A stretch of DNA of 64,000 nt, taken from assembly GCA_030737835.1 (NCBI GenBank), contig CM060855.1:20234162-20298161 (forward strand), written 5' to 3'. Below are positions 13,481 to 63,153 of the stretch, piece after piece. How positions within the stretch are numbered: the first letter of the stretch is position 1; the number at the start of each line of letters is the position of its first letter. The notes below the pieces were generated by a model. It was not told the origin of the DNA. It worked only from the letters and a program-made list of their open reading frames with translations, and did no database searches. A program made the position numbers and the translations under genes. The DNA comes from Acorus gramineus. Its lineage: Eukaryota; Streptophyta; Magnoliopsida; Acorales; Acoraceae.

Positions 13481-13786
13481 GAGGTAAGAATCTCCACTTA
13501 AAAGAGAGAAATTCTCAAAGACAAGACCATGCTTAGAAAGAAATACATATACAAGCATGAAAAATTTAAATACACCTCTTTTACCCCCAAAACATTCCAC
13601 CATGGTCTATCTCTAAACGAACAAACTTATTCACTACGCTCAAACAACTACATAAACACATTTCCCTTTTCTTGTCATTTCATCCATATAAAGCATGCTT
13701 CTAACACTCCTCCCATGATCATAAACACATGCCTACATGCCATCCTATATTACTAAAGGCATATTCACTACAAAAATTAAATACAC
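13481..13786. other. AT-rich leader or intron of PMD copy 2, ending at an integrase junction
   Basis: AT-rich with pyrimidine runs, like 2031-2458. It ends abruptly where integrase coding starts (SPWPFAQWG), with no zinc-finger part of integrase. This marks a deletion joint or an old insertion border. Confidence 0.4.
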
Positions 13787-14618
13787 TTCAAAGTCCTTGG
13801 CCGTTTGCCCAATGGGGGTTTGATATAGTCAGACCGATGCCCATGGCACCATCTCAGAAATGGTTCTTATTGGTCGCCACTGACTACTTCACCAAATGGG
13901 TGGAAGCTGTGGCCCTGGCCAGAATTCGCGATGTCGAGGTGCGAAACTTCCTGTGGAAGGAGATTGTATGCAGGTTCGGAGTGTCGAACACTATAATCTC
14001 TGACAACAGGATGCAGTTCGATAACGCTACAATAAGGTGGTTTTGCAAGGAGTTGGGAATAAAACATCTGTTCTCTTCTCCTCGCTACCCCCAAGGTAAT
14101 GGTCAGGCAGAGATCAGTAACCGTACCATCCTGGACGGGATGAAGAAGCATCTGGACGGAGCTGAAGGAAACTGGGTGGATGAACTCCCCTCGGTATTAT
14201 GGGCGTACCACACAACAGCACGAAGGGCGATAGGTGAAACTCCATTTTCCCTGGCCTTTGGTGTAGAGGCAGTCATTCCTATAGAGCTCGGGATCCCAAC
14301 TTTTCAGACCGAGGACTTCGAGCCACGTGCTAATGAAGAAGTTCTCGCATTCGACTTGGACCTAAGGGATGAGCGAAATGAAGCAGCTTCCGTTAGAATG
14401 GCGAACTACTAGAACCAGATCGCTCAAAGCTACAACAAAAGAGCTCCCCGATGAAGTTTTCTGGTCGGGGACTTGGTCTTACAAGAGGTATTCCCCCGAA
14501 TCCCAAAAACAATCTGATGGTAAGCTCGGACCCAGTTGGGAGGGACCGTATAAAGTCGCTGGGTTGGGTCCAGAAGGGGCTTACTATTTAGAACGAATGA
14601 ATGGAGAGGCACTTATTA

Positions 14619-29659: not shown

Positions 29660-30847
29660 CTAAGGTAGCACTCGGGGTCGGCCAGCATCTGGGCAATTGT
29701 ATCTGATATGCCTGATGCGCTGACAATGGAAACAGCGCCACCTCTCCGGCTGCATGGACTGGATGGGAACTGCCGCAATGGGTGCCGGATCCCACACTGG
29801 CACCGCATCTGCTGGTGGAGAGGCAACCGCTGACCGATCGAAGTGGGGCCTCTTCCTCTTGCGCTGCCCCTGGTCCCGACTCCCGGAAGGACCCTGATCT
29901 GCAGAAGGGGTCGGAACCCTCACGAGGATCCCGAGGTCTCGCTCGACTGTCTTCGCTCGAGACACCAAGTCTGAGAACCTCGAGAAAGCCTGGGAGGAGA
30001 CATGCACCCGAATGGCGCTGCAGAGACCAAGCTCGAAACGGCGGCACCTCGCCTCTTCGTCCATCACCAAGGCTGGAGCGAATCTGGATAGCCTCGTGAA
30101 GCGCGTGGAGTAGTCGGCGACAGACATAGAGCCCTGCGTCAACCGCTCAAACTCCTGCATCACGATCTGTCGGGCCGAGAACGGGAAGTACTCCTCCAGG
30201 AAATACCTCCGGAATCCTGCCCATGAAAGCTGCTCCAATCCCTCGGGAATGTCCACCACTCGGGTAGCCCACCAGTCGGCAGCGCTACCCTTCAGCATGA
30301 AGGTGGCAAGGGAGACTCGCTGGCGATCGGTGCAAAGCATGGTCGAGAAGATCACCTCCACCTCCATCAACCATCGCTCTGGGGCAAGGGGATCCGCCGA
30401 CTGGCCATAGAACTCGGGAGGATGGAGCTTTAGAAAGGCTGCGAGGCCACTCTGCTGCACCCGCGCTGCAGCCTCTAGCCCCACCTCCCTCGCCAGGGGA
30501 TCCTGAACTCTCACCTCTGGAATCGCCACGGGAATTGGGGGTACTTCGGGTACCGCAGGCGGATCTGCCACCAAGGGGACCTGTGGAACTGCATCACGGG
30601 CCGCCCTCAGCTCCTGGATCTCCCGCGCCTGCTCTACCAACACTCTGGTCTGGGCCTCCAGTGCCCTGGTCTGAGTCTCCACTAAATCCGCTATCCGAGC
30701 GAACGCACGTTCCCATGCGGGAGGCTCCTGCGCCGATCCTGGCCTCACAGCCGTGGACTCTCCAGTAGCATCCTCGCCTCTAGTAGGTCCGGAAACCTCC
30801 AAAGGTCGAGAGGGACCATGTCCGCGCCGTCCTCTGCGAGGAGGCAT
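29660..30847 (-). CDS. Ty3/gypsy Gag (capsid-nucleocapsid) protein
   Basis: An intact minus-strand frame of 395 residues. The N-terminus is basic and Arg/Gly-rich. Residues about 48-95 form a coiled coil (FARIADLVETQTRALEAQTR). Residues about 135-300 are the Retrotrans_gag capsid domain: FLKLHPPEFYG, PERWLMEVEVIF, FMLKGSAADWWATR, FRRYFLEEYFP, QEFERLTQGSMSVADYSTRF. The zinc knuckle CFHCQRIRHIRYNC (372-385) is a full CX2CX4HX4C. Gag forms the particle that packages element RNA. The start ATG lies about 100 bases downstream of the PBS. The frame stops right after the knuckle; the protease that should follow is missing, so the element could only move with pol supplied in trans, if at all. Confidence 0.92.
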   Translation of the reverse strand: MPPRRGRRGHGPSRPLEVSGPTRGEDATGESTAVRPGSAQEPPAWERAFARIADLVETQTRALEAQTRVLVEQAREIQELRAARDAVPQVPLVADPPAVPEVPPIPVAIPEVRVQDPLAREVGLEAAARVQQSGLAAFLKLHPPEFYGQSADPLAPERWLMEVEVIFSTMLCTDRQRVSLATFMLKGSAADWWATRVVDIPEGLEQLSWAGFRRYFLEEYFPFSARQIVMQEFERLTQGSMSVADYSTRFTRLSRFAPALVMDEEARCRRFELGLCSAIRVHVSSQAFSRFSDLVSRAKTVERDLGILVRVPTPSADQGPSGSRDQGQRKRKRPHFDRSAVASPPADAVPVWDPAPIAAVPIQSMQPERWRCFHCQRIRHIRYNCPDAGRPRVLP

Positions 30848-30948
30848 ATCAGCAACCTAAGAAAACCAGACACTAGGATCAGAATACTCATATACAAATC
30901 CTAGGACTCATCTCTACGAAAAGAAGACCATTGGCTCTGACAGGACCA

Positions 30949-43427: not shown

Positions 43428-44918
43428 AATTGCGTACACCCAAGGCCGGGCCTGCCCAACGCATGAGCGTGAATGCGTTCCTCATCGAGGAGGAGGTAAC
43501 CCGCACTGAACGTGAACGACCGCTCCTCGACAGGGTCATCCTCGACTACCTCGACCAGGGCAGCATGGGCAATTCCGTGTGTGTTTTAGGAACCTCTGTT
43601 GAAGCCTAAATTGTTGCTGAACCAATGTAGATGAGGCCAATTATTCAATTATCATATTTTTAGTTTACGAAGTTGTTCCATGCATTCTTTATATGCAGCT
43701 TTTTTTAATGTTAAATCATACAGCATTTCATCGAACACTTGATGGGACAATATAAAACACTTATACTTTGTAATACTATGAATGAAATGCTTAATAAGGG
43801 TTACACAATGTTAATATGAGATATGAAGAATCAATACTTCAATTCGATATTAATAAATGTAATGAACAAAAAGTAAAAACAAAGATTGTTTGAGTTTGAA
43901 CATGAATAAATGAAACGGGAAAAAAATAAAGGAGTGGAATTGAATGAAAACATGAAGGAAGAGATTCGGTGAAAGAGATGAAGGGCATTTTTGTCATGTG
44001 AAAGGTTTTTTTTTGTTAAAATGTTAGGGAGTTATTTGTATATATATTTTCTGAATAACTTTTGTTAACGGAATATTCCGTGAATATTCCACACAAATTA
44101 ACGAAAAAATTAACCTAGGGGGTATTTATTTAACCAGGACAACTTTAGGAAGTTATATGGATTTTCGAAAGAAAAAAAAAACATAGGAACATGGATATTA
44201 GCCAGCTTTAGGGGGTTATATACAATTTTTCTCTTTTTCTTAAACAATGTTTAAAACTAATCAATCTTTAATTAAATTTCTTCTGAGCGGGCCAATCAGC
44301 AGACTCATCTACTTGCACAAGATGTCAAACATATACAACTCCCCTACCCAAATTTATGCTATTCAACTTATCAAAATCAACAAATTATACCATCTCCACG
44401 TTTTTCATATTTGGACATAACAAATTACCCAAAAGAAAACACTTAAATTTTATGATCATCTCTCAATAATTATACATTATTGTTCTTGAATTATTGCATG
44501 ATCAACAATTGTGTTACATAGATGATGAGGTGCTTCAAATGGGTTGGTCAGGGGGGTCCCTTAGCAAGTCTGGATGGATACACCTCATTCTTTTTTCTTT
44601 TTTTTTGGTGGGTTACACCTCATTTTTTTAGTTCTAACCATCCAACCAAATGGGCCCTTTCACCATTTGGATTTATGTGATGGTCCCCCCAAAGAAAAAC
44701 ATTTTTTTTATTAGAATATTGTCCATCCAATGTGTTTTTTTATGGGGAGATTAAAATATGATCCAAATTGTTAAAAAAATTTACTTTGAACATTAACAGA
44801 AATATTAGTAGTTCTCACATGTTTGGATCACATCTATAAAGCTATGAACCAACCAATCTGCAGTTAAGATAGATGGAGACAGGACCAGCTTAGTATTTAC
44901 AACGTTATATATGTTTGA

Positions 44919-52623: not shown

Positions 52624-54149
52624 CAAGAGAGGGGGGAGGGATGGGGAGATGTGGGAGCTCACACGCGTGCCCACGACCACCTCGACCACCACCACCACTA
52701 CCACCACCTCAATCTTAGCCTCTCTTCTTCTTGCTGAACCAAAGGGGAGGGGAAACAGGGGATACATGAGGGAACTAGAGGAGGAGGAGAAAGAAGAGGC
52801 AACAACACAACATATGCACACACAAACCTTGCTCTTCCTTCAGGTGCTTCTTCTTCTCCATCACCTTCTCCTTCTATTTCTCTTCTAACACACACACATG
52901 AGAGGGAGAGAAGAGAAAAAGAAGCCTCAGATGGATTTATTTTGCTTGAGAGAGAGAGAGAGATTCAATAACAAATAGGGGGCTTTTAATGAAAATAAAG
53001 GGGGGTTGAAAGGACCAAATCGTCCCTGACAAGAAATTTTGGACATGCTTCACTAGAACAGCCATAACTTCAACCATATAGCTCCGAATTGCAGAATTCA
53101 AAATCCATTCGAAATACAAGAAGCTTATCTACAACTTTCATGTTTATGCCAAGATCAAATAACCCTTCCATCTATTCCAAAATATGAGCTAAACATCAAA
53201 CAGGGCTGCTGCCAGGATCTTCTCATCCCCAAGGTATAATCGGAAAAATACCCATAACTTTTACTACATGAATCCAGTTGATCTATTTCCAATTTTGTAT
53301 GAAAGCTAACTCAAAACTAAATATCTCATGACAAAATCAGATTTAAATCTCTTCATCTTGGATATTAACAAAATTAAATTCGAATACCAATCGGAATTGC
53401 ATAACTTCTAAAAAGACGTCAGAATGCAACGAAAATTTACAGGAAAGCCAATGTCAGTACCAGCAGAACAATTATGCAATCAGAACACTCCAACTCCCGC
53501 AGGTAGCTAAAAGCCAAAATTTTTAGCGACTCCGATTGAAAAATAAGACTTCAATTGACACAGGCATAACATATCTCGTCCATTCCAACGCACACACACA
53601 AATAGAGGTGAGTGTTTCTTGTAAAAAGAAGATATTTATTCCATGAAGTATGTATGTTTTTAGTTATTCTCATTAAGAAATGTAATAATAAAGTTTTATT
53701 GTTTAGTTGATAATGAATAAATTTTCAGTGCTGCTACCCGGGCCCAAATATTAAGCCCCATTGTTGAGCCCCAATAGGTGGCATAATCCTATTGGTCCCT
53801 TGCTTGACTTTTTCTAACCACCAAAAGGCCAATTACACAACTACCCTTATCATGATTTTAAAAATTCGCTCCAATTAGATCATACCGCCGTTAATCCTCG
53901 TTACAAAATCCCAAAAAACGCGGGGTCATTAATCCTTCCACCCATAATAATTTTTTTCAAAAAAAACTAACAAACTAGGGTTTCTAATTTGGGCGTTCAG
54001 ACGATTTCAAAATTTGGCAAATTCAGTCGAACGAAGGAGAAACGGCGATCAGGAGTGATCTGATCTTCTTCCCCAAAAAAATATAGACGACAATGGCGAA
54101 AAACAAAGGTTACATTTCTTGCAAATCGTCCATACCTACTCGGTTTTTT

Positions 54150-54775
54150 GTTTTTTTTTTTGTGCGACATAAACATACACATTAGATTAATTTTTTGCAC
54201 TTCTTGCAAATGTGGAATCCAATCAAGAAACTGTCTCAGTTGTCAAATTTTTCCTTCCGTGCATCGTTTTTTTTTTTTTTTTTTGTGCGATATAAAAATA
54301 CACATTAGATTAATTTTTTGCACTTCTTGCAAATGTGGAATCCAATCAAGAAACTGTCTCAGTTGTCAAATTTTCCCTTCCGTGCATCTGAATTTCATCC
54401 GTTAATACTGTGTATCTGAAATTCACCAGTGTATCTTGATTTGGGAATCCAATCAAGAAACTGTCTCAGTTGTCAAATTTTTCCTTCCGTGCATCTGAAT
54501 TTCATCCGTTAATACTGTGTATCTGAAATTCACCAGTGTATCTTGATTTGGGAATCCAATCAAGAAACTGTCTCAGTTGTCAAATTTTCCCTTCCGTGCA
54601 TCTGAATTTCATCCGTTAATACTGTGTATCTGAAATTCACCAGTGTATCTTGATTTGGGAATCCAATCAAGAAACTGTCTCAGTTGTCAAATTTTCCCTT
54701 CCGTGCATCTGAATTTCATCCGTTAATACTGTGTATCTGAAATTCACCAGTGTATCTTGATTTGGAAAATCACAA
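54150..54775 (+). repeat. Minisatellite of 107 bp units in the outer element
   Basis: GGGAATCCAATCAAGAAACT recurs at 54443, 54550 and 54657 (107 bp period), each unit with two GTATCT motifs. Two earlier units of about 124 bp (from 54150 and 54276) carry a T-run with GTGCGA(C/T)ATAAA instead. Short frames here (CTSCKCGIQSRN) are repeat translations. Confidence 0.9.
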
Positions 54776-55664
54776 ATTTGACATTCTACAAATGTTTTAT
54801 GTTTTCCTGTGCACACCGTTCATATTCTGCATCGAATGATACAATTGGCGTGTAATATCAGATACTTGTATATGAAAATCAATATACTGTGCAATGGTTT
54901 ATTATCACATATTAAGATTTATGTATCTTAAAAAAAATTTAATTTTAATTTAAATCCCTTTGGTGTATCTGAAAATATAACTGTATTTGTTAAATAAAAC
55001 AAATGGTAAAAATGATAATATGTAAGATAGTTGTATCTGAAAACCAAAATCTGTGCAATGGAAGCTTATAAATATTGATTTTATATAGCAAATAATGTTT
55101 TAACATTTATCGCAAATCCCTTTGGTGTATCTGAAAATAGCAAACATCTGATAGAGTAGTTTGGTGTGGGATCTAGCTGGTATGCATGTTTATACAAATA
55201 CACTTGCTGATAAAGAGGTTTTTTACCTATCTGCAGATTTGTTTTAGCAACTGCTGAATTCATGTTTAAGATACACCTGTATCTTAAAAAAAGTGTAATA
55301 CTATGACAGCATATTAGGCATTTTAGAATATATTGAATAGTGATGGATTGTTCTGCATCTAAGAATCAGTATGTGTGTAATTCTGTAGTTCCAAAAGAAC
55401 GAGTTGCTGAACCCAGAAGAAACAAAGCGTACTATCCCCAATACCGATTTACAATTCACAGAATTTTTGAAACGTTCGCTACTATCTTGTCCACATTTTG
55501 CTGATCAGCCAAATCAATCACTTCCTTTGGTAAACTGGTTTCCATTTCACATAAATCGTGGATGTCTTCCAAATAATTTGATTCTTCAAATGTGTCATCT
55601 ATATAATCGTTCTCACTGCCTGTTGAAAAATAGAAAAGTAGTCACATGTTATAAAATTAAAATT

Positions 55665-55960
55665 AAGATACAGTGCTGTATCTTAAAACCAAAACAAACC
55701 ATGTGGATTTTGAATTACCAGACATGTTAATTAGCAGTACATATTTTCAAATAAAGTCCTTCAAACCTTTATATATATATAAGTATATGACAATTAGCAA
55801 TTAAATATTGATCAAGTACACATTAATCAATTCCATAGAAATAAAATGTCAAAAATTCATTTTAAGATACAGTGCTGTATCTTAAAACCAAACAAAAACC
55901 ATGTGGATTTTGAATTACCAAACATGTTAATTAGCAGTACATATATCTTAAATAAAGTCC

Positions 55961-56002
<42 letters not shown>
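55665..56002 (+). repeat. Tandem repeat of 199 bp, second unit split by the inner element
   Basis: AAGATACAGTGCTGTATCTT starts units at 55665 and 55864. The second unit stops in a (TA)n run at about 56002 and resumes after the inner element at 62346 with GACAATTAGCAATTAAATAT. This shows where the inner element landed. Confidence 0.85.
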
Positions 56003-56020
<18 letters not shown>

Positions 56021-56023
56021 AAC

Positions 56024-57172
56024 GATGGGGTGCGGTCGTGCGACCGTGCACCCCATCGTGCGCTCGGTGTTCTCGGCCGTCCGATCGCTGATCTCACGAT
56101 CGGACGGCTGATGGTGGTTTAAAAAAAAAAAGAAAAAAGAAAAGCAAACCGGATGAAACCGGTTGCCTCGAATGACTCCCCCCAAGTCTCCCTCTCCCCT
56201 CTCTCTCCTCTCATTCTTCTCTTCTCCTCTTCGACTCAACAGAGAAAAAAGGGCCCTCTCTCTCCTCTCCTTCTCCTCTTCTCCTCTTCGATTCAACATA
56301 GAAAAAAAGGGGGAGCAGCACCACCTATTGCGGCCTCATCCGCTCGGCCACCCCCACCCCTCCCCGTGCTCGTCGACGCTCAGACACCCCACCCCTCCTC
56401 GTGCTCGTCGACGCTCGGCCACCGCCACCCTCCCCGTGCTTGACGACCACCGGCCACCCCCACCCAATCGAGGTTTTTATCTGATTTTTTTTTTCCAGAT
56501 TTAGGGTTTTCTTTTCAGATTTATTTTGAAGTCTTGGTTTTTATTTGATTTTTTTTCAGTCATGGGGTTTTCTTTTTCAGATTTATTTTGAAATATAGGT
56601 TTTTATCTGATTTTTTTATAGTCATGGGTTTTTTTTTCAGATTTGTTTTACTTTGTAGATGTTTATTGAGGAAGACATTTGGAGCCCCCCCAAAAAAAAA
56701 ATTGATAGATGAAGCCGGTGGTGGACGAGGAGATTTGTAGCAGCACACCCCTGACATGATTTGGAAATAGGAGTAAGTGCATAATACACACATTGGATTA
56801 CTTTTGATGTTACATCTGAAATGAATATGATTTTTCTTTTGACATTATATGCAGATCCTGGAGCACCTATGATTGTCAATTGTGTAAAGAAGAAGAGTGT
56901 GAGGTTGACTCATTTTTTTTCATTTTATTATATTTGTAAACAAGTCTATCTGAATCATGTTTTGTTTTTATTTGATAATAGGTTGTGGAGATTACAAAAG
57001 GAAGTAGTAAAGTCAAATGTGAACTTGATAAGAAAGCTGGGATGATTAAGGTATGCATTCATGCTTGTGTAAATGTTTTGAATTTCATCATGTCTTTTGA
57101 TCATGTATAGATAAAACTCCTTGACTTATTAAAACACCAATGTCCAATCAAAATTCAAAATAAGATTGTTTT
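56024..57172 (+). repeat. Left terminal inverted repeat of the inner element
   Basis: From the tip: two hairpins (GATGGGGTGC.../...GTGCACCCCATC and GGCCGTCCGATCG/CGATCGGACGGC), a CT-rich part, a Pro-coding C-rich part with three similar units (CCGTGCTCGTCGACGCTC), T-rich CAGATTTATTTTGA repeats, then pyrophosphatase exons. It ends TAAGATTGTTTT. Confidence 0.88.
56711..57050 (+). pseudogene. Captured soluble inorganic pyrophosphatase fragment (left TIR)
   Basis: Three exon pieces of a plant soluble pyrophosphatase (hydrolyses PPi to phosphate). 56711-56772 encodes TRRFVAAHP, stop, HDLEIG; the family has Trp where the TGA stands. A GTAAGT donor follows. 56855-56883 encodes PGAPMIVNC, preceded by TATGCAG. 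56982-57050 encodes VVEITKGSSKVKCELDKKAG plus MIK, between GATAATAG and GTATGC. Splice sites are kept, so genomic DNA was captured, not cDNA. Catalytic Asp residues lie further downstream in the family and are absent. The same fragment with the same stop is in the right TIR. Not functional. Confidence 0.85.
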
Positions 57173-57353
57173 GATGAAACTCCTTGACTTATTTTGATTC
57201 GAATTTTGATTCGAACCTCTGCCTCAGGCATTTTGGACTGATTACTATGAAAACTAAAAATTTTTTTATGCATCTCTATGATCTGAGTGCAATGGATCAT
57301 ATCAACTTGCAGTTTTCTGTGAATCAATGATGTTTTTGAGGTTTATGGACTCA

Positions 57354-57476
57354 GGGTCCGTTTGGGACCATGGCGGATCATTCGGTGTTTGAAAAAATGG
57401 AAAGCGTTGTTTCTGGAGCTTCTTAAATGCGGAAAAAAATTGGGTTAGAAACGATTCTCAAGGTCCAAACGAGGCC
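57354..57476. mobile_element. Small MITE-like insertion, 123 bp
   Basis: Ends GGGTCCGTTTGGGA and TCCAAACGAGGCC are roughly inverted; TCA flanks both sides. This resembles a Harbinger-type MITE with a 3 bp duplication. Confidence 0.5.
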
Positions 57477-57952
57477 TCAATTTAAATCGGTAGAGATTTT
57501 TATTTAAGTGGTGTGTGATGAGAGTCATGAGACTGGAGCTCTATATCTAACTTAATGTTGTAAAAAGCATTAGGTGCTAGTTGAAAAATTGGTGACTGAC
57601 TAGGGATTAATTGGCTACGCGGAGATTAATTCGTTACTTTCAAAAAAACTTGAATGCATTTGATGTGAAAGAAATAGTTTGCAATGTTTTACTTGATCCC
57701 TTTATTATGGGTGAATGTTGTGATTTCATGAAAACAGTACACTTGCAATTTCCCCATCTTATAAACCCTTGTTTGGAACTAGGCCAGCAATCCATTGCCT
57801 ATTTTTTGTTGTTGTGTTTTTTATAGCCATGTAGCATTGCGTCTTGGTTTCTCTGCAGTTTTGCTTCTTACTTTAATAAAAGTTTCTGTTAACACATCCA
57901 AGAAATAATGCACAACTTAATGACAGTCATAGCTTTAACCTTGTGCTTGCCA

Positions 57953-58240
57953 TTTTTTTTTTCTAGATAAGTGTTTCCTTGTTAAATCTTACCCTATCAA
58001 TGAGAGAAACTCAGATCCATGACCCCTTAATGAACAGGGAATATCAATGCCTAGTTGCCAAGAGGTGGTCAGTAAAATTGATTTTTAATGAAGATTATTT
58101 TTTTTTCTAGATAAGTGTTTTCTTGTTAAATCTTACCCTATCAATGAGAGAGACTCAGATCCATGACCCCTTAATGAACAGGGAATATCAATGCCAAGTT
58201 GCCAAGAGGTGGTCGGTAAAATTGATTTTTAATGAAGATT
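57953..58240 (+). repeat. Tandem duplication, 144 bp unit
   Basis: CTAGATAAGTGTTT recurs at 57963 and 58107; both units contain CAGATCCATGACCCCTTAAT and AAGAGGTGGTC(A/G)GTAAAATT. Non-coding. Confidence 0.9.
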
Positions 58241-58584
58241 ATTTTTTTTATCTTTCTTTTCCTAGTTAAATATTATCCTATCCGCATGAGTAAGACTTGC
58301 CCACACTTTTATCATATACTTGCCATGTAGGTTCTTAGGAGGGGGTGATTGGTCGAAAACATCAACCAAGTTCTAGGAATCATTGGTCTAAACATTAAGT
58401 CCTTTTTCTCATTGTTTGTTGCCATTTCTTTTTGGTGTTCAAGGCATTCAACTGTGAGCCAATATGTTTTTTGATAATCTGATGGCTTTTAATTTTATGT
58501 CTCAATCAAAATTCAAAATTTTCAGTGAAGATTCATGGCACATGTTTTTCAATTTCCTTCTGTTTCACTCATTTCCTTGTGCAG

Positions 58585-59537
58585 ATGGACATCTTTTTGA
58601 GAGTGATAAGAACCATCCCTTTGAGAGTGAAGAGCTCCGACAAGATCAGTGATGTCAAAGCTAAGTTACATGAAACAGTGGGAGTCAGAGCTAGCCTCCA
58701 GAAGCTATTTTATGGAGACAACCACTTAATGGATGACAAGACCTTGGCTGATTTTGGCATAGCTAGGAACTCTACTCTGAACATGTATATCTCTAGTGAA
58801 AGTGAAGAACAAATATTCATCAAAACTTCAAAAGGGAACACAATTACACTTGAAGCGAAGAGCTGGGAAACTATCCATACCATCAAAACCAAGATTAGTG
58901 AAAAGGAGGGGGTTCCACTTGGACAGCAAGCTCTTTTCTACGCCGGTAGATCACTGGAAGACATTCATTCACTGAACTTCTATGGTATCAAAAAGCATTC
59001 CACCCTTCATTTGGTCTTATACAATGATGGACTGCAAATTTCTGTTGCCACCCCACATGGAGAAACTATCACTCTGAATGTGAAGACAAGTTATACTGTG
59101 TATGATGTGAAGATGCTGATCGAGAGCAAGACGGGTCTACAACAGAGCCTTCAGAGACTGACCTACAATGACCGAACTCTTCAAGACTCGGTGACCTTAG
59201 CAGAATGTGAAATTCATGAACACGTAGTATTTAAAGCCATCCATTTGTTGATTTTGTTCCAAATATTCATTGTGAGTGGAAACACATATACACTTGATGT
59301 TTATAGCAATGACACCATTGACAGCATTAGAGGAAAGATCTCTATTAACATTCATAATAATATCTTTTAACAAATAATTGCAAGATGCAGATGCTTAGGC
59401 ACTTGGATCAGTGTTTCGACAAGGATGATCATACACTGAATGATTATTCCATAGAGATTGGGTCAAGGATGATCCAACTTGAGCAATCCTCTAGCCCCAT
59501 GAAACCTGTGACTATATATGCAACTATCATAAGGTGA
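58585..59537 (+). pseudogene. Ubiquitin-like tandem-repeat protein gene, fourth repeat frameshifted
   Basis: ATG at 58585 directly follows an intron-like acceptor (CCTTGTGCAG), as in polyubiquitin genes with a leader intron. The frame gives 261 residues to a stop at 59370. Ubiquitin-like repeats: 1-73 (MDIFLRV...STLNMYI), 75-149 (IFIKTSKGNTITLEAKSWET...STLHLVL) and 150-222 (ISVATPHGETITLNVKTS...TLQDSVTLAE). A fourth starts at about 227 (FIVSGNTYTLDV...TIDSIRGKI), then the frame is lost; its end (DHTLNDYSIEIGSRMIQL) is in another frame at 59385-59537. No repeat ends in the RLRGG tail, so ubiquitin-type processing or conjugation is not expected. It lies between the TIRs, so it was probably captured. 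The first three repeats stay open over 0.7 kb, so a translated product is not excluded. Confidence 0.8.
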
Positions 59538-61196
59538 AGACAAAAGACAACAGAGGAAGCATGATTCAGTGAAGACAAATATTTATAGAACTGCAGAAAC
59601 CACACTTATGGAAACCATTCTTATGGGGCCACATAAACATTAGACTATATTTCCATGAAACAAAAACAAAACATGGAAACAAAACACATCATTGATAGCT
59701 AAAGTGAAAAAAAATAAAAAACCTCTTTACACAGATCTTGCAGAAGTAGATCCACACCATCAGAAAAATATATATATTAAATAACAGACACCACAAATAT
59801 GAGTGATTGCTAACTTCAATATCGCCGACCTTCGGTAGTAGAGAGGAGGATCCTGCTTGACTTCTTTCCTTTCTTCCCGAATCCCTCTACACGTGGGACC
59901 TCCGGGCCACCTGAGGCTTATGCTGCGGTGGATACGATGTTAGCTAATGACAACGTTGGCATATTTCGATGGTCTGCAACACAAAGTTATTTATCGATGA
60001 GTCAAAGGTGGTGTCCACTGATTTTATTAAATTGATAGCATGAACCAAAAGAATATGGAGAAATGAAGAAGAGAGACCGAGACAAGGAATAATGGTTCAT
60101 AAAGAATAGACCACTCAGACACTACATTCTTAGGATATTACTCTACTAAGCATCTGTCAGTGACAACGATTTGTTTTTTCAAGCTTCAGAATATAAGAAA
60201 AGAAAATGTTAGGAATAACTTTTCAGTTCAGATTGCAACAAGTTTTGAATTTTTTAAGGAATATGCTTTCATTATAAGAAATGAAGTATGCACTAAAATG
60301 AATCATATAATAAAGTGTGTACCTGCAAAAAAAATAATTTGGGTTCAATTACACATAAGGTCAGTGAAGCACGCAGGCTACAAAACGTGTTGCAAAAAAG
60401 AGTAAGAAAAGGGGAAATGTGTAATGCATGGGGCAAACACCGATCCCCTATCTATTTGTTCCTCTAAATCATTAAATTGCAGAAACAGAGAATTGGCATG
60501 GGGAAGGAGCATGTGTGTATTGGAGAGGTCTATAGTGAAATTCTAGCACAAGAGGATCTAAACAAACATAAGCTCACTGTGGTTAATGATTAAGTAGAAT
60601 ATATTAGAGGTCACTGAAATATATTGGGAGATGGGCCAAGAGGAGGATTCTCGGTCTCTTGAGCCCAGATTTCCAGTTCAAAAGTCATTCTTAAGGGGTT
60701 AGATAAATAACTGATGAGAAATTTATCAAATTTCATTTAGGATTGAAAATAAATCTTGAACATAAATGCAGAACCAATTGGCCTACAAAAATAAGAGATA
60801 GCCAACTCAATTTGGAGGATAACATGCATCAAATTTTGACAGAATGAGTTCAAAGAAAACAAAATCTTGTGTTTTTTAAATGCTAGTCAGAGTGAATCAA
60901 AAGAACCTAGCATGAATAAAACAAATGCGACTACTATGCCCCCATACAATATTTGGATCTTTTTAACATTAATTAGGAGAATCTTAATAGCAATTAGAGA
61001 GGAACAAATTTTGGATCTTAAACAGAATAAACCCAAAATACAATGAAATAAAAGGCTTAAAAAATAGACAAGCCCCAGAGAAACATCAAAACTACATGTT
61101 GATATTTTCTTTTTGATTCCTTAATCTGTTCACTGAAGTCCAAACTAGTTTCATCAACCAGTTTACGGACCTAAGAAGATCGACAAAAAAAAAAAA
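59538..61196. other. Core of the inner element downstream of the ubiquitin-like gene
   Basis: Mostly AT-rich. On the minus strand about 59960-59820 an acceptor-like TGTTGCAG is followed by coding-like sequence (RWPGGPTCRGIREERKEVKQ in one frame) that I cannot assign; it may be another captured exon. Nothing else recognised. Confidence 0.35.
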
Positions 61197-62338
61197 AACA
61201 ATCTTATTTTGAATTTTGATTGGACATTGGTGTTTTAATAAGTCAAGGAGTTTTATCTATACATGATCAAAAGACATGATGAAATTCAAAACATTTACAC
61301 AAGCATGAATGCATACCTTAATCATCCCAGCTTTCTTATCAAGTTCACATTTGACTTTACTACTTCCTTTTGTAATCTCCACAACCTATTATCAAATAAA
61401 AACAAAACATGATTCAGATAGACTTGTTTACAAATATAATAAAATGAAAAAAAATGAGTCAACCTCACACTCTTCTTCTTTACACAATTGACAATCATAG
61501 GTGCTCCAGGATCTGCATATAATGTCAAAAGAAAAATCATATTCATTTCAGATGTAACATCAAAAGTAATCCAATGTGTGTATTATGCACTTACTCCTAT
61601 TTCCAAATCATGTCAGGGGTGTGCTGCTACAAATCTCCTCGTCCACCACCGGCTTCATCTATCAATTTTTTTTTTGGGGGGGCTCCAAATGTCTTCCTCA
61701 ATAAACATCTACAAAGTAAAACAAATATGAAAAAAAACCCCATGACTATAAAAAAATCAGATAAAAACCTATATTTCAAAATAAATCTGAAAAAGAAAAC
61801 CCCATGACTGAAAAAAAAACAAATAAAAACTTAGACTTCAAAATAAATCCGAAAAGAAAACCCTAAATCCAAAAAAAAATCAGATAAAAACCTCGATTGG
61901 GTGGGGGTGGCCGGTGGTCGTCAAGCACGGGGAGGGTGGCGGTGGCCGAGCGTCGACGAGCACGAGGAGGGGTGGGGTGTCTGAGCGTCGACGAGCACGG
62001 GGAGGGGTGGGGGTGGCCGAGCGGATGAGGCCGCAATAGGTGGTGCTCCCCCTTTTTTTCTCTGTTGAATCGAAGAGGAGAAGAGGAGAAGAGAAGAATG
62101 AGAGGAGAGAGAGGGCCTTTTTTTCTCTGTTTAGTCGAAGAGGAGAAGAGAAGAATGAGAGGAGAGAGAGGGGAGAGGGAGACTTGGGGGTAGTCATTCG
62201 AGGCAACCGGTTTCATCCGGTTTGCTTTTTTTTTTTTTTTTAAACCACCATCAGCCGTCCGATCGCGAGATCAACGATCGGACGGCTGAGAACACCGGGC
62301 GCACGATGGGGTGCACGGTCGCACGACCGCACCCCATC
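61197..62338 (-). repeat. Right terminal inverted repeat of the inner element
   Basis: Inverted copy of 56024-57172, same hairpins, C-rich units and pyrophosphatase exons. Differences by eye are few: small indels in homopolymers and in the CT-rich part. Confidence 0.88.
61317..61656 (-). pseudogene. Captured soluble inorganic pyrophosphatase fragment (right TIR)
   Basis: Mirror of the left fragment: exons at 61656-61595, 61512-61484 and 61385-61317 (minus strand), same splice sites and the same TGA in place of the family Trp. The shared stop shows the damage predates, or was copied with, the TIR duplication. Confidence 0.85.
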
Positions 62339-62345
62339 ACTTCCC

Positions 62346-63153
62346 TATATATATATATATATATATATATGACAATTAGCAATTAAATATGAATCGGATA
62401 ACATTAATCAATTCCATAGAGAAATAAAATGTCAAACTTCAGATTGTGCTTGAAAACAAATTCAAGATACACGTGTATCTGGAATTTAATTTGATAGAGA
62501 AATAAAAACAAACAAAAAGGTATGGGATGAATCGAATGAGTAATAAAAAAATCAGATCGAATATGAATTATTCAGATCGAAATAAATCTAACCTGATTGG
62601 ATCTCCATTGTTTCACCACAATCAGGTCGCGAACAAAAAAAAAAATTGAACCGTGCAATTCTAATATCCTCTACAGATCCAACTGAAAAAAAATTTGATT
62701 TCGATGTTTGTTTTCACTTCCACCATTGAATCTAGATCTAAAATAATATAAATCGTGATTTTTTTAGGGTTCGAAAGGCCTAACCTGGATGTTTGCACCG
62801 CCATTAAATCGCACAAAAAAAAAGAAAAACGTTGAAATCCTCTCTTTCAACATTGAAATTAAAATCGACTATCAAATCTGAATGAAAAATGAAAATTGAT
62901 GTTTGTTTTCTTTGCAGCATATCAATTTTTATAAAACTCTGTGATTTTTTATTTTTTTTTATTTTGATCGTGCAATTGAAGTATCTTCATACACCGAAAA
63001 TTCTCACCCAAATCGTAACTAACTCGGTATTAATTGGACGGTTATTGAAAAAATGGGGAGATTAGTTAGGGGGGGTAATATAGGTATTTCAAGATTGCCA
63101 CCTCATGGGGCTTAGGTTGGGGTCTATTAGTTGGGGCCCAAAAATCATTATTG
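62346..63153. other. Right arm of the outer Mutator-like element
   Basis: AT-rich. It holds the rest of the split 199 bp unit, a GTATCT palindrome (AAGATACACGTGTATCT at about 62464), and T-rich GTGCGATTTAATGG-type sequence on the minus strand that parallels the left arm. No gene. Confidence 0.5.

What the first reader, a model, noticed from the sequence alone, without database searches (positions are those of the whole stretch)
56003..62345. Pack-type transposon whose TIRs themselves carry captured pyrophosphatase exons
Both 1.15 kb TIRs contain the same three-exon fragment of soluble inorganic pyrophosphatase with splice sites kept and a shared stop in place of a conserved Trp. The core carries a ubiquitin-like repeat gene with an acceptor site before its ATG. 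So one element acquired pieces of two unrelated genes, and one piece became part of the TIR. Inverted pyrophosphatase sequence read through from a promoter could make hairpin RNA matching the parent gene.
Basis: partly seen in the sequence, partly recalled or inferred. Interest (0 to 1): 0.8.

Follow-up and report, generated by a model that had tools for sequence, protein, structure and literature searches.

The report
Transposon with host exons in ends
In the plant Acorus gramineus, a gene-capturing DNA transposon carries an old, broken piece of a pyrophosphatase gene inside both of its long end repeats and a much younger piece of a ubiquitin-like gene in its middle, showing how stolen host exons can become an inherited part of a transposon's ends.

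Summary
Observation confirmed with one correction. Window 56017-62345 (Acorus gramineus, contig C9) is a Pack-type element in a (TA)n tract. Both ~1.15 kb arms carry exons 1-3, with introns, of soluble inorganic pyrophosphatase (PPase). Exon 1 has a shared stop and a lost native donor; the other splice sites stand. The core holds a truncated ubiquitin-like (Ub) gene. Two near-complete relatives exist (C9:10.2 Mb, C52:2.05 Mb). The captures differ in age: PPase is 78-79% identical to its two nearest genes, Ub 98-99% to one gene on C11, with template-switch-like filler at its junctions. PPase sequence lies in both arms of six loci and on one side of nine more, in lineages with different cores, so it is an inherited TIR component. 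The arms exchange sequence: the window's inner 527 bp is identical while the outer part differs at 20 of 604 sites; arm trees conflict; one relative has its core inverted relative to its tips. A chimeric PPase-Ub mRNA and hairpin siRNA are possible but untested. Captured Ub shows no constraint (dN/dS 0.72-1.09, few changes). MULE membership is likely, not proven. Captured sequence in extended TIRs has a stated precedent.

The parts
56017..62345 (.). Whole element: Pack-type non-autonomous DNA transposon inserted in a (TA)n tract
   Evidence: Family end consensus, TIRs, two near-complete relatives
56017..57172 (+). Left TIR arm, contains PPase exons 1-3
61195..62345 (-). Right TIR arm, contains the same PPase exons 1-3
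56024..56057 (+). Tip palindrome GATGGGGTGCGGTCGTGCGACCGTGCACCCCATC; a second palindrome follows at about 56075-56109
   Evidence: left end folded as single-stranded DNA, z -7.3; 122 genomic sites with at most 3 mismatches, control 0
62305..62338 (-). Right tip palindrome
56726..56770 (+). PPase exon 1 piece, left arm; TGA at 56752-56754 in place of Trp; native donor GT changed to GA
56855..56883 (+). PPase exon 2, left arm
56982..57050 (+). PPase exon 3, left arm; donor GTATGC follows
57051..57163 (+). Start of PPase intron 3; homology to the native gene on C7 stops close to the inner end of the TIR
61597..61641 (-). PPase exon 1 piece, right arm (stop at 61613-61615)
61484..61512 (-). PPase exon 2, right arm
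61317..61385 (-). PPase exon 3, right arm
57173..57213 (+). Junction with duplicated short motifs between PPase intron 3 and Ub flank (filler-like)
57214..59468 (+). Captured piece of the C11 ubiquitin-like gene: upstream flank or intron, acceptor, coding exon; probably without the first exon
   Evidence: 98.4% over 1,638 bp and 96.6% over 414 bp to C11; first exon inferred from the annotated homologue P0004
58585..59370 (+). Ubiquitin-like ORF, 261 aa, truncated in the fourth repeat relative to the parent; acceptor TGCAG at 58580-58584
59336..59380 (+). 45-bp filler, 100% identical to C11:16247848-16247892 (minus), about 3 kb downstream of the parent gene
   Evidence: also present in L030 and L033
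59474..61194 (.). Right half of the core, shared with a relative on C68 that shows no Ub; includes pieces 87% like C32:1.07 Mb (59549-60786) and 78-84% like C7:18.07 Mb (60792-61193)
55646..55853 (+). Uninterrupted paralogous copy of the flank (related empty site): the flank is a ~200-bp tandem duplication and the element sits in the TA tract of the second copy
   Evidence: blast pairs 55646-55788 with 55846-55989, and 55770-55853 with 62352-62436

Best explanation
A non-autonomous, TA-microsatellite-inserting, Pack-MULE-like transposon family of Acorus gramineus captured a genomic piece of a PPase gene (exons 1-3 with introns) long ago, next to one terminal arm. The piece became part of both arms when sequence was copied from arm to arm (gene conversion or crossover between the inverted arms, or gap repair using the other arm). 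The PPase-bearing TIR was then inherited by lineages with different cores. In the window lineage a recent template-switching repair event copied a truncated ubiquitin-like gene from C11 into the end of the PPase intron-3 sequence; the composite is now found at three places. SHOWN by sequence: both captures and their different divergence, PPase in both arms of six loci, filler at the junctions, arm exchange. INFERRED: transposase type, the direction of copying, capture next to one arm first. UNTESTED: transcription. If transcribed inward from the left arm, the kept exon-3 donor could join the Ub acceptor in phase 0.
For: PPase homology at 78-79% spans introns and covers arm positions 703-1140 of 1149. 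All 27 of 27 candidates scored: 2 native genes, 2 pieces right of Ub, 23 other pieces; inverted pairs in WIN, C52, C9:10.2 Mb, C58, C8 and C2. L034 (C58) and L041 share the 5' capture junction and the stop (L041 as TAA) but go on into other sequence after part of intron 1, and L034 matches the window element only in its arms. Ub parent C11 at 98.4-99.0%. 45-bp filler from 3 kb downstream of the parent, inverted. Ub flanked on the right in L030 and L033 by a duplicated intron-3 tail. Arm exchange: 0/527 inner versus 20/604 outer differences, Fisher 3e-6; L033 0/529 inner; conflicting trees, outer WIN_F+L030_F 100/98, inner L033_F+L033_R 100/99; L030 core inverted relative to two tip markers. 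A relative on C68 shares arm and right core with no Ub match there (79 of 79 candidates scored). Two public gene models join PPase exon(s) to Ub.
Against: No transposase was found between paired tips: 150 of 1,162 MULE candidates were scored and compared with 69 of the 72 exact tips; the nearest lies 2.7 kb outside a tip pair. The 122 looser tips were not compared this way. The TSD cannot be read in (TA)n. L030 inner arms differ at 6 of 524 sites, so homogenisation is not complete in every copy. In the outer tree L033_F groups with the right arms, not with the other left arms, so tip sides are not clean throughout. The deletion common to both L030 arms is about one unit of a 35-bp tandem repeat with slightly different edges and could be two events; the L033 changes are one cluster. 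Nine loci have PPase on one side only; they may be the ancestral state or decayed two-sided elements, and eight of the nine were not fetched (L041 was). Cores of C8 and C2 were not read. dN/dS rests on few changes. The gene models are predictions, and P0002 adds an exon from 13 kb upstream.
Confidence: 0.75

Rival explanations
1. The element is mainly a silencing locus: read-through gives a hairpin whose PPase stem makes 21-24 nt siRNAs that act on the PPase genes, and this keeps the PPase piece in the arms.
For: Arms 1.15 kb with an identical 527-bp inner part; 149 of 1,129 arm 21-mers within 2 mismatches of one PPase gene and 110 of 1,129 for the other.
Against: The arms stand 4.0 kb apart; PPase divergence is about 17-18%, as expected of unconstrained drift; only 14 and 21 perfect 21-mers. 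Arm identity is explained by exchange. No RNA data were available.
Confidence: 0.08
2. The chimeric PPase-Ub gene is a functional new gene under selection, and this drives the amplification.
For: Exon-3 donor and Ub acceptor are in phase 0; public models P0001 and P0002 are annotated this way.
Against: dN/dS of copies versus parent 0.72-1.09 on 11-15 changes, while native C11 versus C3 is 0.32; among the copies nonsynonymous changes outnumber synonymous ones (4.5 to 0.5, 4.5 to 0.5, 6 to 0). The Ub ORF is truncated; exon 1 has a stop and lost its donor. Only these two proteins carry the fusion, among 2 candidates.
Confidence: 0.07
3. The two arms arose by one inverted segmental duplication of a single arm around the Ub gene, recently and in this lineage only, without later exchange.
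For: The inner arms are identical in the window.
Against: PPase is also in both arms of C58, whose core is different, and in inverted pairs at C8 and C2, whose cores I did not read. The outer arms differ at 20 of 604 sites, and two tip markers are shared by side across the three copies. L033 carries a cluster of changes common to both of its arms.
Confidence: 0.05
4. The superfamily is not Mutator: a Tc1/mariner- or PIF/Harbinger-like element with TA or TWA targets.
For: Insertion in (TA)n (39 of 41 tips) and ends starting GGG fit several superfamilies (recalled); no transposase linked.
Against: Kilobase TIRs, gene capture, hairpin-rich tips and (TA)n targeting match published MULE families (Pack-MULE features).
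Confidence: 0.15

Closest known systems
Pack-MULEs / Pack-TYPE transposons (plants)
   Same: Non-autonomous, long TIRs, genomic host-gene fragments with introns, several genes in one element
   Different: The captured exons lie inside both TIRs and are shared with relatives that have different cores; target is (TA)n, so no readable TSD
MULEs whose acquired sequence is integrated into extended TIRs (statement in PMC3310237 section 4.2, citing Hanada 2009 and Lisch 2002; passage seen, cited papers not read)
   Same: The same kind of event: host sequence becomes TIR
   Different: Here resolved by age, lineage, exchange between arms and core inversion; I could not compare with the cited examples
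MuTAnT (Medicago, PMC4486113) and SaTar/Micron MULEs (guayule, rice, PMC5907723); passages seen
   Same: Insertion into TA microsatellites, long or fold-back TIRs; MuTAnT also has G-rich extreme ends and many short copies
   Different: Different tip sequence; their non-autonomous members are about 0.2-1.9 kb and no gene capture is mentioned in the passages seen
MULEs with tandem TIRs (PMC3310237; passages seen)
   Same: L026 and L035 of this family have two tips in tandem at one end
   Different: The window element has one tip per end
TIR-TIR recombination inversions in Wolbachia IS elements (PMC3004938; abstract seen)
   Same: Crossover between inverted ends inverts the inside
   Different: Here a kilobase-armed plant element

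Membership tests
Pack-MULE | Long terminal inverted repeats | tested here: met
   1.15 kb arms, 96%
Pack-MULE | Carries fragments of host genes found elsewhere in the genome | tested here: met
   PPase genes C7 and C4; Ub gene C11
Pack-MULE | 9-11 bp target site duplication | tested here: inconclusive
   Both flanks are (TA)n, so the TSD cannot be delimited; a related empty site exists beside it
Pack-MULE | TIRs shared with an autonomous element coding a mudrA-type transposase | tested here: inconclusive
   150 of 1,162 PF10551 candidates scored, compared with 69 of 72 exact tips; the nearest is 2.7 kb outside a tip pair, none inside
Pack-MULE | Multi-copy mobile family, no transposase of its own | tested here: met
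   122 tips with at most 3 mismatches, control 0; two near-complete relatives; the longest ORF in the element is the Ub one
TA-microsatellite-targeting MULE (MuTAnT/SaTar type) | Insertions flanked by (TA)n | tested here: met
   39 of 41 distinct tips have (TA)5 or more within 60 bp, versus 96 of 20,000 random 60-mers
Hairpin silencing locus | Transcription through both arms and siRNA | not testable with these tools
   No RNA data; only sequence matches counted
Functional chimeric gene | Purifying selection since capture | tested here: not met
   dN/dS 0.72-1.09 versus parent, on 11-15 changes

The most novel reading that the evidence does not exclude
TIRs of this family grow by assimilating host DNA: a fragment captured beside one arm is copied by recombination between the arms into the other, becomes a heritable part of the TIR, and is passed on with new cores. 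The TIR becomes a portable 5' exon and donor cassette that can be spliced to whatever core is captured next. The tip palindrome itself is kept symmetric by the same kind of exchange (hairpin-templated correction).
Probability: 0.45. Interest if true: 0.65.

Novelty: new variant of a known kind. Interest (0 to 1): 0.5.

Why it matters
How gene-capturing transposons acquire sequence and how long TIRs grow is an open question. One genome here holds what may be successive steps: loci with PPase on one side, elements with it in both arms, a relative without the Ub piece, and composites with it, together with junction filler that points to template switching at the parent locus. Acorus is, from general knowledge, the sister lineage of the other monocots. 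Three near-complete copies with conflicting histories of tips, inner arms and core make exchange between arms directly testable.

Tried and rejected
Single recent capture of both genes: rejected, divergence differs about tenfold. Capture through mRNA: rejected, introns or non-coding flank are kept for both genes. Outer arm as PPase 5' flank: rejected, native homology starts at arm position 703-705. Transposase linked to the tips: not found in the part scored. Pfam on the typed 49-aa PPase peptide: no hit, while the PDB search hit. P0001 residues 1-40 as query, looking for other PPase chimeras: only P0001 and P0002, among 2 candidates. PF00719 search: 16 matches, mostly exons of host genes; one weak hit (E 0.57, one TGA inside) coincides with the one-sided locus C4:21.81 Mb. 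Pfam on an open frame of L041: no family. Papers: seven answered searches. None of the listings showed this family or a PPase/ubiquitin capture in Acorus; the library lacks most subscription papers, and Hanada 2009 and Jiang 2011 were not held. Paper reading gave passages of PMC3310237 (also its reference list), PMC4486113, PMC5907723, PMC9168764 and PMC13317346, no passage of PMC8903248 (76, no term found), and the outline with abstract of PMC3004938.
Full report
WHERE AND WHAT. The window is G000:C9:20234162-20298161 of a 398.6 Mb genome. Just outside the tips the family reads (TA)n-GGG(A/G)(A/G)N(C/T). Of 41 distinct tips, 39 have (TA)5 or more within 60 bp, against 96 of 20,000 random 60-mers. 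The ~200-bp flank repeat beside the element holds an uninterrupted copy of the target. The left end folds into two hairpins (z -7.3).

THE ARMS. Window 56726-57163 aligns across three exons and introns to a PPase gene at C7:9.49 Mb, and 56726-57109 to one at C4:25.05 Mb, at 78-79%; two further PPase genes match at 71-74% over short stretches. Exon 1 carries a stop at the conserved Trp in both arms and has lost its native donor; exons 2 and 3 keep theirs in the window (one arm of L030 has lost the exon-2 donor); a 3-bp insertion in exon 3 keeps the frame. In the alignment the window arm differs from the C7 gene at 56 of 338 sites and from the C4 gene at 66 of 358, while the two genes differ from each other at 53 of 345. 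So the capture is about as old as the split of these paralogues, or its true parent is gone.

OTHER LOCI. A search with the PPase segment scored all 27 of 27 candidates. Two are the native genes and two are small pieces right of Ub in the two relatives. Of the other 23, exons 1-3 lie in both arms of the window element and of C52:2.05 Mb (L033) and C9:10.2 Mb (L030); an exon-1 part lies in inverted pairs at C58 (L034), C8:13.69 Mb and C2:17.61 Mb. C68 has a 98% copy on its right arm and an 86% tail on the other side. Nine loci show it on one side only: C69, C4:21.81, C76, C7:20.58, C5:24.70, C7:7.58 (L041), C32 twice, C3. L034 and L041 share the 5' junction with the window but continue into other DNA after part of intron 1, and L034 matches the window element only in its arms. 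C8 and C2 were not read; they gave no match to the window core, in a search that scored 40 of 126 candidates. I read this as one old capture that became TIR and was kept while cores changed.

THE CORE. The Ub part (57214-59468) is 98.4% identical over 1,638 bp to a gene on C11, the relatives 98.5% and 99.0%; exact tip motifs are absent from the 5.3 kb held around it. Judging by the annotated homologue P0004 on C3, whose first 14 residues lie outside the main exon, the first exon was not captured, so the acceptor at 58580-58584 has no exon of its own gene upstream. A 45-bp piece inside the truncated fourth repeat is identical to C11:16247848-16247892, inverted, about 3 kb downstream of the parent. 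In L030 and L033 the right side of Ub runs into a second copy of the PPase intron-3 tail; on the left, short motifs are doubled. This is what template switching during repair leaves. The right half of the core (59474-61194) occurs in C68 beside its PPase arm, where a Ub protein search that scored 79 of 79 candidates found nothing, so Ub probably came last. Pieces of that half resemble C32:1.07 Mb (87%) and C7:18.07 Mb (78-84%), perhaps sources of further captures (not followed).

EXCHANGE BETWEEN ARMS. In the window the inner 527 bp of the arms is identical, while the outer part differs at 20 of 604 sites (Fisher 3e-6). L033 has 0 of 529 inner differences, L030 has 6 of 524. Trees conflict: near the tip WIN_F groups with L030_F (100/98), with L033_F among the right arms; inside, L033_F groups with L033_R (100/99) and WIN_F equals WIN_R. 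L033 carries a cluster of substitutions common to both of its arms; L030 shares one substitution and a loss of about one 35-bp tandem unit between its arms, the latter possibly two events. Relative to two tip markers (56064, 56075) the core of L030 is inverted. Crossover or conversion between arms explains these together.

WHAT IT MAY DO. The exon-3 donor and the Ub acceptor are in phase 0. Two public models, P0001 (the L030 copy) and P0002 (the window copy), join PPase exon(s) to Ub. They are predictions; P0002 also takes an exon from 43463-43579. The Ub copies show dN/dS 0.72-1.09 against the parent, the native pair C11/C3 0.32, so I see no sign of a maintained protein. Hairpin RNA is possible; 149 of 1,129 arm 21-mers match the nearer PPase gene within 2 mismatches.

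FAMILY. Other members hold other genes: L028 a MADS-box domain (PF00319 2.2e-24); L069 an exon that I recognise by eye as ribosomal protein L24-like, lying between tips at C1:21964048 and 21969327. The family therefore works as a Pack-type system. MULE membership is likely from TIR length, capture and (TA)n targeting, but the TSD could not be read and no transposase was linked. [quoted passage not shown] What I did not see in the listings is an example followed across lineages with arm exchange and core inversion.

On going back over the calls I corrected details (C8 and C2 cores not read, first Ub exon inferred, L030 deletion ambiguous, tip comparison partial).

Noticed in passing
56024-56057, 62305-62338 and genome-wide tips: The inner tip palindrome covaries. 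Among the 100 of 122 tips listed (46 variant, 54 perfect) 10 two-sided changes fall in the inner stem, 9 of them restoring Watson-Crick pairing (four types; shuffle mean 0.74, 0 of 5,000 shuffles reach 9), beside 22 one-sided changes; the outer stem has 0 two-sided and 21 one-sided. Related copies are not independent. Selection for symmetry or hairpin-templated correction.
   Followed up: partly
L026 and L035 (C4:19.09 and 19.19 Mb): Two tips in tandem 128 bp apart at one end, like published MULEs with tandem TIRs.
   Followed up: no
L028, 2217-2876 minus: MADS-box ORF (PF00319 2.2e-24) between two tips of this family.
   Followed up: partly
L069, about 1837-1905 plus: Exon resembling ribosomal protein L24 (by eye) inside a 5.3 kb stretch with tips at both ends.
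   Followed up: no
C68:1443743-1453948: Relative with the same right core half and a PPase-bearing right arm but no Ub match; the left side shows only an 86% intron-3 tail.
   Followed up: partly
window 59549-61193: Core pieces resembling C32:1.07 Mb (87%) and C7:18.07 Mb (78-84%): possible third and fourth captures.
   Followed up: no
window 29663-30856 minus and 13705-14409 plus: Retrotransposon gag (PF03732) and integrase core (PF00665) ORFs; the window outside the element is rich in repeats.
   Followed up: no
window 54143-54765: Tandem array with a 107-bp unit, about 4 copies, 1.3 kb left of the element.
   Followed up: no
L025, L029, L001, L004, L005, L007, L040, L044: MITE-sized members, roughly 0.36-0.63 kb between tips.
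   Followed up: no
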